Shown: positions 56,431 to 60,887 of the stretch, in pieces
How positions within the stretch are numbered: the first letter of the stretch is position 1
Layout of the letters: each line of letters begins with the position of its first letter
NCBI RefSeq assembly: GCF_001548115.1
Contig: NZ_AP014821.1
Location: forward strand, 310,001-374,000
DNA length: 64,000 nt
Direction of reading: 5' to 3'
From: Geminocystis sp. NIES-3709
GTDB taxonomy: Bacteria; Cyanobacteriota; Cyanobacteriia; Cyanobacteriales; Cyanobacteriaceae
Notes under the pieces: model-generated
What the model saw: only the letters and a program-made list of their open reading frames with translations
Database searches by the model: none
Told to the model about the DNA's origin: nothing
Made by a program: the position numbers and the translations under genes

Positions 56431-57030
56431 TTATTTTTTTAGTTGTTTTCTAATAACCCAAATTACAAATAAAAATCCAATACTCAATAAACCAATTTTA
56501 GAAAAAGGTGCAATATATTCTTCAACTAATACATAATTATTTCCTAAAACATAACCAGCCCCCGTTAACAATGAAACCCAAAGTAATGTTCCTATGGTAG
56601 AGTAAATTACAAAAGAACTCATTTTCATGGCATTTATTCCGGCTGGTAGAGAAATTAGAGTTCGTATTCCGGGTACTAATCTACCTAAAAGAACAGCTAC
56701 ATTACCGTATTTATTAAACCATTTATTGGCTTTGTTAATATCACCCCCAGATACAAAAATCCATTTACCATATTGATCAGCTAATTTTTCCAGTTTTATT
56801 TCATCGACAATTATTCCCAAATAATACCAAGGAAATGCTCCCAAAATTGTTCCAATTACTCCAGCAGCGATCGCTGGAATTAACTCCATTTTTCCCTGAG
56901 ATACTGTAAAACCTGCTAACGGCATAATTAATTCTGAAGGAATAGGGGGAAATAAATTTTCTAAAAACATTAACAAAGCAATTCCTACATATCCCAGAGA
57001 ATTCATTGTACTTGTGATCCATTCAGTCAT
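56431..57030 (-). CDS. DedA-family membrane protein
   Basis: A 199-residue DedA/SNARE-associated membrane protein with about five to six hydrophobic segments. Conserved blocks are ENLFPPIPSELIMPLAGF, GTILGAFPWYYLG and RLVPGIRTLISLPAGINAMKMSSFVIYSTIGTLLW (the FGRxxPxxRxxxxxxAG motif). The family flips undecaprenyl phosphate, phosphatidylethanolamine or other lipids, or moves protons. Between kdpD (52 bp) and the ABC ATPase (61 bp) on the same strand, so possibly part of one long transcript. Confidence 0.92.
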   Translation of the reverse strand: MTEWITSTMNSLGYVGIALLMFLENLFPPIPSELIMPLAGFTVSQGKMELIPAIAAGVIGTILGAFPWYYLGIIVDEIKLEKLADQYGKWIFVSGGDINKANKWFNKYGNVAVLLGRLVPGIRTLISLPAGINAMKMSSFVIYSTIGTLLWVSLLTGAGYVLGNNYVLVEEYIAPFSKIGLLSIGFLFVIWVIRKQLKK

Positions 57031-57091: not shown

Positions 57092-57913
57092 TTACTGATA
57101 TTTTTCGAGAAAATCTAAAGCCTGATTGCGTAACTCATAATATTCTGGTGTTTCTCGTAACTCATGAGCATATCTTGGGCGAGGTAAAGGAATATCAAGA
57201 ATTTTACCGATCGTAGCATTAGGAGCATTACTCATCATCACAACTTTATCGGACATAAAAATAGCCTCATCAACATCGTGAGTAATCATCATTACTGCTT
57301 GGCGATGATTTTCCCAAATATCTATTACCTGTTGTTGCAATTTAGGACGAGTTAAAGCATCCAACGCACCAAAAGGTTCATCTAGTAATAGTAATTTAGG
57401 GCGTGTGGCTAAAGCACGGGCAACTCCTACTCTTTGTTTCATCCCCCCTGAAAGTTCATGGGGATATTTATCGGCGGCGGGTGTTAAATTAACCATTTCA
57501 ATATGTTCATTCACGATACTGATTTTTTCCGCTTTATTAGCTGTTTTAAATACTTCATCTACCGCTAATCGAATATTCTCTCTGACTGTTAGCCAAGGAA
57601 GCAAAGCATAGCCTTGAAACACCATCATGCGATCGGCACCTGGTTTACGAATCCTTTTACCTTCTAAAGTTATCATTCCAGAGGTGGGTTTTTCTAAACC
57701 AGCGACAATTCTGACTAAAGTTGATTTACCGCAACCTGAGTGTCCAATTACAGAGACATACTCTTGTTGTCCTATCGTAAGATTAATCCCATTTAAGACT
57801 ACATAATCACTGCCATCAGTTTTTTTGAAGGCTTTAACTACGTTTTCAACTACTAAAAAATCCTCTGAGTTGATTGTGGAGGATTTGATTTGATTTTCTG
57901 TTGGGAATACCAT
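57092..57913 (-). CDS. ABC transporter ATP-binding protein (NrtD/SsuB/TauB-like)
   Basis: A 273-residue ATPase of the nitrate/sulfonate/taurine family: Walker A GHSGCGKSTLVRI, Q-loop VFQGYALLPWLTV, signature LSGGMKQRVGVARAL, Walker B LLLLDEPFGALDALTR and switch His in MMITHDVDEAIF. It powers the permease at 59410-60249. It is third in the order permease, binding protein, ATPase, 97 bp after the binding protein gene. That gap carries a CGCAAAG repeat. The substrate is not shown by sequence. Confidence 0.94.
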   Translation of the reverse strand: MVFPTENQIKSSTINSEDFLVVENVVKAFKKTDGSDYVVLNGINLTIGQQEYVSVIGHSGCGKSTLVRIVAGLEKPTSGMITLEGKRIRKPGADRMMVFQGYALLPWLTVRENIRLAVDEVFKTANKAEKISIVNEHIEMVNLTPAADKYPHELSGGMKQRVGVARALATRPKLLLLDEPFGALDALTRPKLQQQVIDIWENHRQAVMMITHDVDEAIFMSDKVVMMSNAPNATIGKILDIPLPRPRYAHELRETPEYYELRNQALDFLEKYQ

Positions 57914-59409: not shown

Positions 59410-60216
59410 TTAACCTCTTGCCGGGCGATGGGTGATCATAACTTGTAGTTGGGCTAAGGCATAATCGAGAATTAACCCTGTCAAACCAATGACAAATACC
59501 GCTAAAAATACAGAACTAACATTGAGACGATTCCACTCATCCCAAACGAAAAAGCCAATACCAACACCCCCTGTGAGCATTTCTACCGCCACAATTACTA
59601 ACCAAGCGATACCTAAACTAATCCTTAAACCCGTAAAAATATAAGGCAGACTCGCAGGAAGTACCACTTTAAATAATTGTTTCCAACGAGGCATCTCTAA
59701 AACATCGGCAACTTCTAAGTATTCTTTGGGAATATTCATCACTCCTTCGGCGGTATTCATAATAGTTGACCATAATGAAGTTATAAAAATTACAAAAATA
59801 GCAGAAGGTTCAGCAGAATTGAAAATAGCTAAGGCAATGGGTAGCCATACAAGAGGAGAAACGGGTTTAAATACTTGAATAATCGGATTGATAATTTGCC
59901 ATGCACTGTGATTCATTCCAATTAAAAATCCCACAGGAATAGCCACGATCGCACCTAAGAAAAAACCGATCAAAACACGGCGTAAACTAGCTAATAGTAA
60001 CCATCCTAAACCCAAATCACCAGGTCCTCGACGGTAAAAAGGATTTAAAATAAAATCGAGATTTTTTGCTAATGCTTCTGGAGGAGTTGGCATCATTTCC
60101 CCACGGAATAAGGCGATCACCCACCAAAGAGCAATAACACCAACAAAACCAACGATCGGTAATAAGAAATTAGAATTTGTGACAAAATTGAGAAAGTTAT
60201 TTTTCTTTGCTTTCAT
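59410..60216 (-). CDS. NrtB-like ABC permease (nitrate/sulfonate family)
   Basis: A permease of 268 residues from ATG 60216 (a TTG at 60249 would give 279). About six membrane helices (FLLPIVGFVGVIALWWVIALF, VLIGFFLGAIVAIPVGFLIG, AIFVIFITSLWSTIMNT and others) and the binding-protein-dependent EAA loop (EVADVLEMPRWKQLFKVVLPASLPYIFTGLRISLG) match NrtB/SsuC/CynB. It is the first gene of the permease-binding protein-ATPase operon. Its leader holds a c-di-AMP riboswitch about 410 nt upstream of the TTG, so this operon is the nearest downstream target of that RNA. Confidence 0.9.
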   Translation of the reverse strand: MKAKKNNFLNFVTNSNFLLPIVGFVGVIALWWVIALFRGEMMPTPPEALAKNLDFILNPFYRRGPGDLGLGWLLLASLRRVLIGFFLGAIVAIPVGFLIGMNHSAWQIINPIIQVFKPVSPLVWLPIALAIFNSAEPSAIFVIFITSLWSTIMNTAEGVMNIPKEYLEVADVLEMPRWKQLFKVVLPASLPYIFTGLRISLGIAWLVIVAVEMLTGGVGIGFFVWDEWNRLNVSSVFLAVFVIGLTGLILDYALAQLQVMITHRPARG

Positions 60217-60660
60217 AAAAATTAGAAATTGTGATTGATTTTTGCTCAATATAGCTAACTTTTTTCTCTCAAAATTATGATCTTCTTACCCTCTCAAATT
60301 AAGAAGATTGAGAAAGTAAAATTTAGCGAAGAAGTTAGTAAATACATGAAATAGGAATATCCAAAGCGTTTTTTCAGTGTTTAAAAGTCGCTTTTTATTA
60401 ATTGCTATAAAACTATTTAGACAAAAGACAAGTTAAGAAAATACTTTTTTTGATAAGTAAATTGTCTCAGTTTTTGGACAATAAAATATCAAGTTTTTAT
60501 CCTTAAGTTACGATGCAGAAAATAGTTCAAAAAATTTTTGTTAAGAACAATTCATATAATTAGTTACACCTCAAAATTCAGTAAAGGTAATCAAATGTAG
60601 AGATTTGTCAAAGTCGGAATACCTAAATGAAATTGAGACACGAAAAATGCTCATTCTTTA

Positions 60661-60808
60661 GTCTCCTCTCAATGCCTACGAGGTTAGCTGACGGGCTAGG
60701 ACTGAGAGATGTCCTTCTTTACTGTTAAAGTAACGATAAGCCCCTAAATTGGTTCCCCCGTTTCCATTTGATCAAGTTAATTGACATTTTGGAATTAGGC
60801 CGACTCAC
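60661..60808 (-). promoter_or_regulatory. cyclic di-AMP riboswitch (ydaO/yuaA type)
   Basis: On the minus strand the sequence runs GTCGGCCTAATTCC ... GGAAACGGGGGAACCA ... TTAGGGGCTTATC ... AGAAGGACATCTCTCAGTCC ... TAGCCCGTCAGCTAACCTCG, then TAGGCATTGAGAGGAGAC. These match, in order, the conserved blocks of the ydaO/yuaA aptamer (GGNNCCGxGGAACC, GGGG, GACAGCTAACCTCGTAAGC, GAGAGGAGA). The RNA binds two c-di-AMP molecules and usually lowers expression of osmolyte and K+ transport or wall genes when the ligand is high. Nearest downstream gene: NrtB-like permease. The 3' strand ATTGAGA (60667-60673) can re-pair with TCTCAAT (60632-60638), a possible switching element. Confidence 0.9.
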
Positions 60809-60887
60809 TCTAAAAATAGATTCTATCCTATTCATTAAGTTTTTTGTGTGATGGTGAAAACAAAATTAGATTAATTTATAATTTATA

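What the first reader, a model, noticed from the sequence alone, without database searches (positions are those of the whole stretch)
60661..60808. Cyclic di-AMP riboswitch in the leader of an NrtABD-like ABC transporter
The minus strand shows the ordered conserved blocks of the ydaO/yuaA aptamer, including GTCAGCTAACCTCG and GAGAGGAG. Known c-di-AMP riboswitches control K+ and osmolyte transport and wall genes; a nitrate/bicarbonate/sulfonate-type importer (permease, Tat-exported lipoprotein, ATPase) as the nearest target would link c-di-AMP to uptake of a small anion or nitrogen compound, or reveal an osmolyte transporter misread as nitrate type. c-di-AMP is known to matter for osmotic and night survival in cyanobacteria.
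Basis: partly seen in the sequence, partly recalled or inferred. Interest (0 to 1): 0.88.

Follow-up and report, generated by a model that had tools for sequence, protein, structure and literature searches.

The report
c-di-AMP riboswitch before NrtBAD-type transporter
The marked stretch matches a known RNA sensor for the bacterial signal molecule c-di-AMP, and related cyanobacteria show that it goes with a little-known nitrate-like uptake system, although in this genus the sensor sits unusually far from the gene.

Summary
Confirmed. Rfam RF00379 (c-di-AMP/ydaO) matches window 60811-60658(-) over the full model at 74.5 bits (gathering 38), the only match in this 4.43-Mb genome. The same aptamer precedes the orthologous permease/binding-protein/ATPase operon in 92 of 95 testable loci and 73 of 76 named-genome loci (the sets overlap), so this is a normal target in cyanobacteria. 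'Nitrate' is not a safe name: the genome has its own NrtABCD and CmpABCD, its CmpB also passes the 'ntrB' model, and the binding protein is a third subfamily with its own invariant residues. A conserved post-aptamer platform usually ends at the permease Shine-Dalgarno and start codon. In the window genus that start opens a 4-codon ORF (MNCS*), and the permease starts 324 nt beyond it. Against G011 the platform is 94% identical and the spacer 53%, so the switch looks maintained. The riboswitch class is ordinary; a dedicated c-di-AMP-linked Nrt-family importer and the leader-ORF layout are moderately interesting. Substrate, sign of control and how control reaches the permease are unproven.

The parts
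60658..60811 (-). c-di-AMP riboswitch aptamer (RF00379)
   Evidence: 74.5 bits, gathering 38, full length
60701..60709 (-). aptamer loop that can form the pseudoknot with 60665-60673
   Evidence: 9 complementary bases (no chance control)
60569..60657 (-). conserved post-aptamer platform: stem A, stem B, Shine-Dalgarno-like GAGG at 60572-60569
   Evidence: 60 loci aligned; stem pairs hold in 88.9% of cells against 84.3% shuffled and 29-42% slid; 96% (G009) and 94% (G011) of aligned bases identical
60621..60637 (-). 3' arm of stem A, also complementary to the Shine-Dalgarno strand (alternative pairing, mixed support)
   Evidence: for; against
60541..60555 (-). 4-codon leader ORF ATG AAT TGT TCT TAA (MNCS*), at the place of the permease start codon in most other genomes aligned
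   Evidence: translation not tested
60217..60540 (-). AT-rich spacer, 324 nt; 88% of aligned bases identical to G009, 53% to G011 (there 204 nt)
59410..60216 (-). Nrt-type ABC permease, 268 aa
   Evidence: TIGR01183 241.9 bits, cut-off 209.05; PF00528
58011..59405 (-). substrate-binding lipoprotein, 464 aa, twin arginines R7 R8 and cysteine C26
   Evidence: PF13379; R7, R8 and C26 invariant in 10 of 10; nearest solved relatives are NrtC/CmpC regulatory domains
57092..57913 (-). ABC ATPase, 273 aa
   Evidence: TIGR01184 358.9 bits, cut-off 291.8
56431..57030 (-). DedA-family membrane protein, 199 aa, collinear; not at this place in G009
   Evidence: PF09335; L368
55305..56378 (-). KdpD-like protein without kinase (KdpD sensor domain plus C-terminal Usp), the only KdpD-domain match in the genome
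   Evidence: PF02702 and PF00582; NF038185 431.6 bits, below its cut-off 550; single hit in genome

Best explanation
A standard cyanobacterial c-di-AMP riboswitch stands at the head of an operon for a third Nrt/Cmp-family ABC importer (permease-binding protein-ATPase), followed on the same strand by DedA and a KdpD-like K+ sensor. SHOWN: aptamer; conserved link to this transporter; post-aptamer platform with two supported stems that in most aligned genomes ends at the permease Shine-Dalgarno and start codon. INFERRED: c-di-AMP closes the aptamer pseudoknot and shifts the platform, so that the Shine-Dalgarno is exposed or hidden, i.e. control of translation start rather than an intrinsic terminator. 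INFERRED: in this genus extra DNA came to lie behind the old start codon; the old start is now a 4-codon leader ORF and the permease uses a later ATG. The switch would then act on the operon through translation of the leader ORF (mRNA protection), or only weakly. The likely purpose is ion/osmotic homeostasis; the substrate is probably a small anion, unidentified.
For: Rfam hit. Aptamer upstream of the orthologous operon in 92 of 95 testable loci, missing in 3 of 3 distant homologues, and in 73 of 76 loci of named genomes. Platform: stems A and B 88.9% paired, covariation score 0.207 against 0.150 in shuffles, 0 of 500. No terminator-like site between aptamer and permease on the minus strand. 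Operon gaps 4, 97, 61 and 52 nt. Against G011: platform 94%, aptamer 89%, permease DNA 79%, spacer 53% of aligned bases identical; against G009 96, 95, 95 and 88%. DAC-domain gene present. Co-targets include ion-transport genes. W95, N143, Y196, A240 and R271 invariant in 80 of 80.
Against: 441 nt lie between aptamer and permease ATG; it is the largest of the 52 permease distances (measured there as 410 to the first possible start codon; next 229). GAGG-to-ATG spacing of the leader ORF, 13 nt, is long. No excess folding stability for aptamer plus platform (z -0.60) or platform alone (z +1.10) in the window. For stems A and B the two stricter measures do not stand out (pairs changed on both sides 7, reached by 88 of 500 shuffles; further pair types 21, 39 of 500). 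The Shine-Dalgarno helix shows no covariation in a fixed register (74.2% against 74.1%) and no signal in close relatives; G+C of the two strands is correlated (r 0.54). Promoter and terminator scans are at chance level. A Synechocystis salt study (passage, PMC8670252) did not find the co-target Slr0753 in its proteome and names only sll1864, of three chloride-exporter candidates, as salt-induced. No expression or binding data for this locus.
Confidence: 0.72

Rival explanations
1. The riboswitch is intact but the permease has been uncoupled from it: the inserted spacer carries its own promoter and the switch only makes a short leader RNA.
For: Long spacer that changes fast between the window and G011 (53% of aligned bases identical, 204 against 324 nt); long SD-ATG spacing; the leader ORF ends after 4 codons.
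Against: Aptamer and platform are better conserved than the permease DNA in G011, though only about equal to it in G009, and the three genus genomes with this operon (of five held) keep the same order. No minus-strand promoter-like site in the spacer, although that scan is weak evidence.
Confidence: 0.17
2. The riboswitch's target is the small ORF right behind the aptamer (27 codons, 60654-60571), not the transporter.
For: AGGAG eight bases before an ATG; the region is nearly identical in three genomes.
Against: A 2-nt deletion in G011 breaks the frame, and this stretch lies in the conserved platform, with stem A.
Confidence: 0.03
3. The operon is an ordinary nitrate (or bicarbonate, cyanate) importer that happens to be c-di-AMP controlled.
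For: TIGR01183 and TIGR01184 above cut-off. Arg271 keeps a positive charge at the place of a lysine of the genome's NrtA-like protein.
Against: Separate NrtABCD- and CmpABCD-type operons exist in the same genome (binding proteins 647 bits to 2g29 and 628 bits to 2i48), whereas this protein gives 153 and 155 bits. CmpB also passes the 'ntrB' model (329.8 bits). At positions that I place in the NrtA pocket (recalled, not from a call) Gln, His and Gly are Asn, Tyr and Ala in 80 of 80.
Confidence: 0.2

Closest known systems
RF00379 c-di-AMP (ydaO/yuaA) riboswitch
   Same: Full-length covariance match above the gathering score; conserved core; possible pseudoknot.
   Different: Lineage variants in the core; no terminator-like site behind the aptamer here, unlike the Bacillus copies (recalled).
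Synechocystis slr0753 c-di-AMP riboswitch (CitMHS, putative chloride efflux)
   Same: Same aptamer class; in the genus the copies before the slr0753-type gene (L011, L012; in L003 with exoD between) have a homologous platform. Review passage: c-di-AMP riboswitches 'verified in cyanobacteria', the Synechocystis one regulates slr0753 (PMC10117731, passages).
   Different: Target is an ABC importer here; the slr0753-type gene of this genome has no riboswitch.
NrtABCD nitrate/nitrite and CmpABCD bicarbonate transporters
   Same: Homologous permease, binding protein and ATPase.
   Different: No NrtC/CmpC-type fusion in the window operon, gene order permease-binding protein-ATPase, binding protein 29-36% identical to the four paralogous matches, different residues at the compared pocket positions.
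KdpD / c-di-AMP control of kdp in Bacillota
   Same: KdpD-like gene with Usp domain in the operon; KdpD Usp domains bind c-di-AMP in Staphylococcus aureus (abstract start of PMC8214093 in the listing); a c-di-AMP riboswitch controls kdpFABC in Bacillus thuringiensis (title and abstract start of PMC6488665).
   Different: Here the protein lacks the kinase, and kdpA is elsewhere in the genome.

Membership tests
RF00379 c-di-AMP riboswitch | Covariance-model score above gathering threshold over the full model | tested here: met
   74.5 against 38 bits, positions 1-134
RF00379 c-di-AMP riboswitch | Loop/3'-strand pseudoknot | tested here: met
   9 complementary bases; at least 7 in 162 of 189 copies; complementarity only, G-U counted, no chance control
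RF00379 c-di-AMP riboswitch | Binds c-di-AMP and changes gene expression | not testable with these tools
   needs in-line probing and reporter tests
RF00379 c-di-AMP riboswitch | Host makes c-di-AMP | tested here: inconclusive
   one DAC-domain gene, 133 bits; presence of the gene, not of the molecule
NrtABCD nitrate transporter | NrtA orthologue | tested here: not met
   window protein 153 bits to 2g29 against 647 for the genome's own NrtA-like protein
NrtABCD nitrate transporter | NrtC: ATPase fused to a binding-protein-like domain | tested here: not met
   operon has one 273-aa ATPase and no fusion
CmpABCD bicarbonate transporter | CmpA orthologue | tested here: not met
   155 bits to 2i48 against 628 for the genome's own CmpA-like protein
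Nrt/Cmp/Ssu-type ABC importer superfamily | Homologous permease, NMT1_2 binding protein and ATPase together | tested here: met
   permease in 78, binding protein in 80, ATPase in 79 of 80 named loci
CynABD cyanate transporter | Linked cyanase gene cynS | not tested
   no search for it was made
KdpD-like non-kinase potassium sensor (NF038185) | Score above curated cut-off 550 | tested here: not met
   431.6 bits, although PF02702 and PF00582 are met

The most novel reading that the evidence does not exclude
A large share of the cyanobacterial c-di-AMP riboswitch regulon is a dedicated, uncharacterised ABC importer for a small anion, possibly chloride, that works opposite a co-regulated putative chloride exporter and beside USP/KdpD K+ sensing. 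In lineages where the target gene has moved away, the riboswitch controls translation of a short leader ORF (often 4-13 codons), which in turn decides the fate of the distant message.
Probability: 0.12. Interest if true: 0.85.

Novelty: new member of a known kind. Interest (0 to 1): 0.5.

Why it matters
If right, it gives an unnamed transporter found in about 40% of the order's sampled genomes (121 of 291) a regulator and a probable role (ion/osmotic balance under c-di-AMP), and stops it being read as a nitrate importer. It also offers a testable case of a riboswitch whose own start codon opens a tiny leader ORF far from the regulated gene. The order-wide link makes the substrate question testable in any tractable cyanobacterium that has the operon.

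Tried and rejected
27-codon ORF directly behind the aptamer as target: rejected, frame broken in G011, region is platform. Intrinsic terminator behind the aptamer: none found on the minus strand before the permease; two minus-strand terminator-like sites lie inside the permease and binding-protein genes, with totals at chance level (4 found, 4.4 expected).

Shine-Dalgarno helix: first permutation test (56 of 60 sequences, 4 dropped for short segments) 0 of 1000 for 3' arm:SD, control 5' arm:SD 699 of 1000, but stem-B region:SD 3 of 1000 and G+C correlation 0.54. A second cut of the segments gave no sister-pair signal (26 of 47, p 0.48); I judged the segments mis-cut and redid it (121 of 136 sequences): distant pairs 38 of 54, p 0.0068, control 23 of 54, p 0.77; all pairs 23 of 40, p 0.14; close pairs 5 of 13, p 0.46; whole-set permutation 0 of 2000, but the control reaches 43 of 2000. 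The fixed-register count does not support it. It stays a suggestion. The ligand sign (ON or OFF) could not be inferred.

Pocket lysine: I first placed it at residue 266, which is variable, then, from the numbering offsets, at 271, which is invariant; the pocket list itself is recalled. Riboswitch at the slr0753-type gene of this genome: looked for, not found. Nelson et al. 2013 and Block et al. 2010, which may list this transporter among ydaO-linked genes, are not held, so I make no claim of priority. Of the 15 papers listed (of 48) for at least three of c-di-AMP, cyanobacteri, nitrate transport, riboswitch none held all four; ydaO + cyanobacteria + ABC transporter found 0 papers.

Full report
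OBSERVATION. The window scan against all of Rfam gives three matches; the one that matters is RF00379 at 60811-60658 minus, 74.5 bits (gathering 38), full length. It is the only RF00379 match in the genome.

WHERE THIS IS. Sister genome G011 has a contig of the same length (78,066) as the named record Geminocystis sp. GBBB08 that carries the same operon, so the window comes from Geminocystis or a very close genus.

HOW COMMON. RF00379 matches occur in 10 of 15 genomes of the family, 179 of 291 of the order sample and 93 of 386 of the phylum sample; the last two used stricter filters that lose some weak matches.

WHAT FOLLOWS THE APTAMER. Orthologues of the window's binding protein (E <= 1e-100) are in 121 of 291 order genomes. 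Outside the genus 109 matches are close (63-80% identity over most of the protein). I took the 2 kb upstream of 97 of these 109 (12 were left out, two or three of them at contig ends, the others for no stated reason) and of 3 distant ones (40-43%). A profile built from Rfam-matched copies, some of them at the same loci, finds the aptamer in 92 of the 95 whose upstream DNA is long enough (two are cut at contig ends; one of the 92 is a partial copy at a contig start) and in 0 of 3 distant ones. In the six complete non-hits Rfam finds nothing up to E 0.5. Of 80 named loci (the best 80 of 273 relatives), 73 of 76 testable ones carry it; the three without are Pseudanabaena. The named set overlaps the G-handle set, so the two counts are not independent. 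The link is old and kept.

THE WIDER SET OF TARGETS. For 147 riboswitches with downstream DNA in hand (138 of the 140 matches plus 9) the first recognised gene class is: this permease 52, universal stress protein 40, CitMHS/slr0753-type permease 35, a family-4 glycosyltransferase like sucrose synthase (name recalled) 4, small ORFs 8 (one example of each of three types tested: no Pfam match), Na+/H+ exchangers 4, ExoD 2, the ATPase alone 1, and one P-type ATPase not assigned by the clustering. Distances there run to the first possible start codon. Within 2.5 kb behind the ATPase on the same strand the 80 named loci have USP 24 times, CitMHS 20 times and ExoD 5 times (families). A review (passages, PMC10117731) says that the Synechocystis riboswitch regulates slr0753, a putative chloride efflux transporter; PMC9896922 (passage) tells how suppressor mutations led to that name. 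A salt study (passage, PMC8670252) did not detect Slr0753 and does not list it as salt-induced. PMC5986932 (passages) reports that Nelson et al. 2013 linked cyanobacterial c-di-AMP riboswitches to osmoprotectant synthesis and transport.

THE TRANSPORTER. The genome has two further operons of this superfamily, one with an NrtA-like protein (647 bits to 2g29), one with a CmpA-like protein (628 bits to 2i48), each with an NrtC/CmpC-like partner. The window's binding protein scores 153 and 155 bits with these structures and 226 with an NrtC/CmpC-type regulatory domain. Its permease passes the NCBIfam 'ntrB' cut-off (241.9 against 209), but the genome's CmpB (329.8) and NrtB (357.9) pass by more, so the model name says nothing on substrate. 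At five positions that I place in the NrtA pocket (Trp, Gln, His, Gly, Lys; recalled, numbering does not match exactly) the family has W95, N143, Y196, A240 and R271, invariant in 80 of 80; my first placing of the lysine (266) was variable. The kept positive charge hints at an anion. Twin arginines and the lipobox cysteine are invariant in 10 of 10.

THE PLATFORM. Behind the aptamer lies a conserved element of about 90 nt (60 loci, taken from 86 dissimilar ones): stem A (ACUGA.AGAG / CUC.UCAGU in most, ACUAAAGAA / UUCAUUUAGGU here), stem B (GGUAC / GUACC in most) and a Shine-Dalgarno sequence, followed in most by the permease ATG. Stems A and B pair in 88.9% of cells; shuffled 84.3% (0 of 500 reach it); slid versions 29-42%; the stricter counts (pairs changed on both sides, further pair types) do not stand out (88 and 39 of 500). 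The 3' arm of stem A can also pair with the Shine-Dalgarno strand. Swapping partners between distant relatives costs 1.0 kcal/mol on average (38 of 54, p 0.007) while the control pair shows nothing (23 of 54); but close relatives show nothing, an earlier cut showed nothing and a fixed-register count shows no covariation. No terminator-like site stands between aptamer and permease here. Translation control is the natural reading, its sign unknown. In the window itself neither stretch folds better than shuffled sequence.

WHAT IS ODD HERE. In the genus the platform's ATG opens four codons only (MNCS* here; MNSF* and MNYC* in G009 and G011), and the permease starts at 60216, 324 nt beyond the stop. 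Between the window and G011 the platform is 94% identical, the aptamer 89%, permease DNA 79%, the spacer 53% of aligned bases; against G009 the figures are 96, 95, 95 and 88%. In G011, then, conservation stops at the leader ORF. The layout recurs where the target gene is far: among 40 riboswitches with a target 200 nt or more away (five of them genus or related loci added by hand) 22 are dissimilar, 17 of these have an SD-like sequence in the right place, and 13 of the 17 have ATG 4-13 nt behind it, against 0-5 of 17 at seven other offsets (27 of 33 against 1-12 of 33 without thinning). One of the 13 is an interrupted permease gene; lengths run from 3 to 54 codons. Some short ORFs are kept among relatives (for example M[GVE]I[LV]M[SL]AYRSQQF in six loci). 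The start ATGAAT here equals the permease start of several other genomes, so I read MNCS* as the relic of the old permease start, perhaps still useful as a ribosome landing place. Whether it is translated is untested.

THE REST OF THE OPERON. DedA and a KdpD-like protein without kinase follow with gaps of 61 and 52 nt. In G009 the KdpD-like gene follows the ATPase directly and in G011 one other gene lies between. It is the only KdpD-domain match of the genome, and kdpA lies elsewhere. The slr0753-type gene of this genome (89% identical to that of G009, which has a riboswitch) has none.

VERDICT. The riboswitch is an ordinary member of a known class; its target class is well supported and may be implicit in earlier genome-wide lists that I could not read. 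What is worth following is the dedicated third Nrt-family importer under c-di-AMP and the displaced-start, leader-ORF layout.

Noticed in passing
L097, L100, L108 (G451, G440, G503), also seen from L040, L041, L044: Two RF00379-type aptamers in tandem about 500 nt apart before the same permease; in L040 and L041 a 78-codon ORF (MFNI[SG]DRVRHKATGEVGTVIGYGHQ...) stands behind the first one. G451 and G440 have five matches each.
   Followed up: partly
L017, L019, L039, L050, L051, L209, L246, L260: By eye, a second type of post-aptamer platform (GACCCACCTC...), before USP or small ORFs where the gene was looked at.
   Followed up: no
L015, from 126 nt behind the core motif: A 53-codon ORF resembling the permease N-terminus (by eye) stands between the riboswitch and a CitMHS gene, as if the transporter genes had been deleted and the exporter gene had inherited the riboswitch.
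   Followed up: partly
window 60307-60281 (-): 8-bp hairpin UCUUCUUA/UAAGAAGA with a loop containing UUUGAGAGGG that resembles the aptamer's pseudoknot strand; present in G009, absent from the alignment in G011.
   Followed up: no
L284, L285, L288, L290, L292, L295 (genus g25): A 13-codon leader ORF, M[GVE]I[LV]M[SL]AYRSQQF, kept between riboswitch and CitMHS gene.
   Followed up: partly
L240: In Picosynechococcus sp. PCC 7117 the orthologous binding-protein gene lies on a plasmid record.
   Followed up: no
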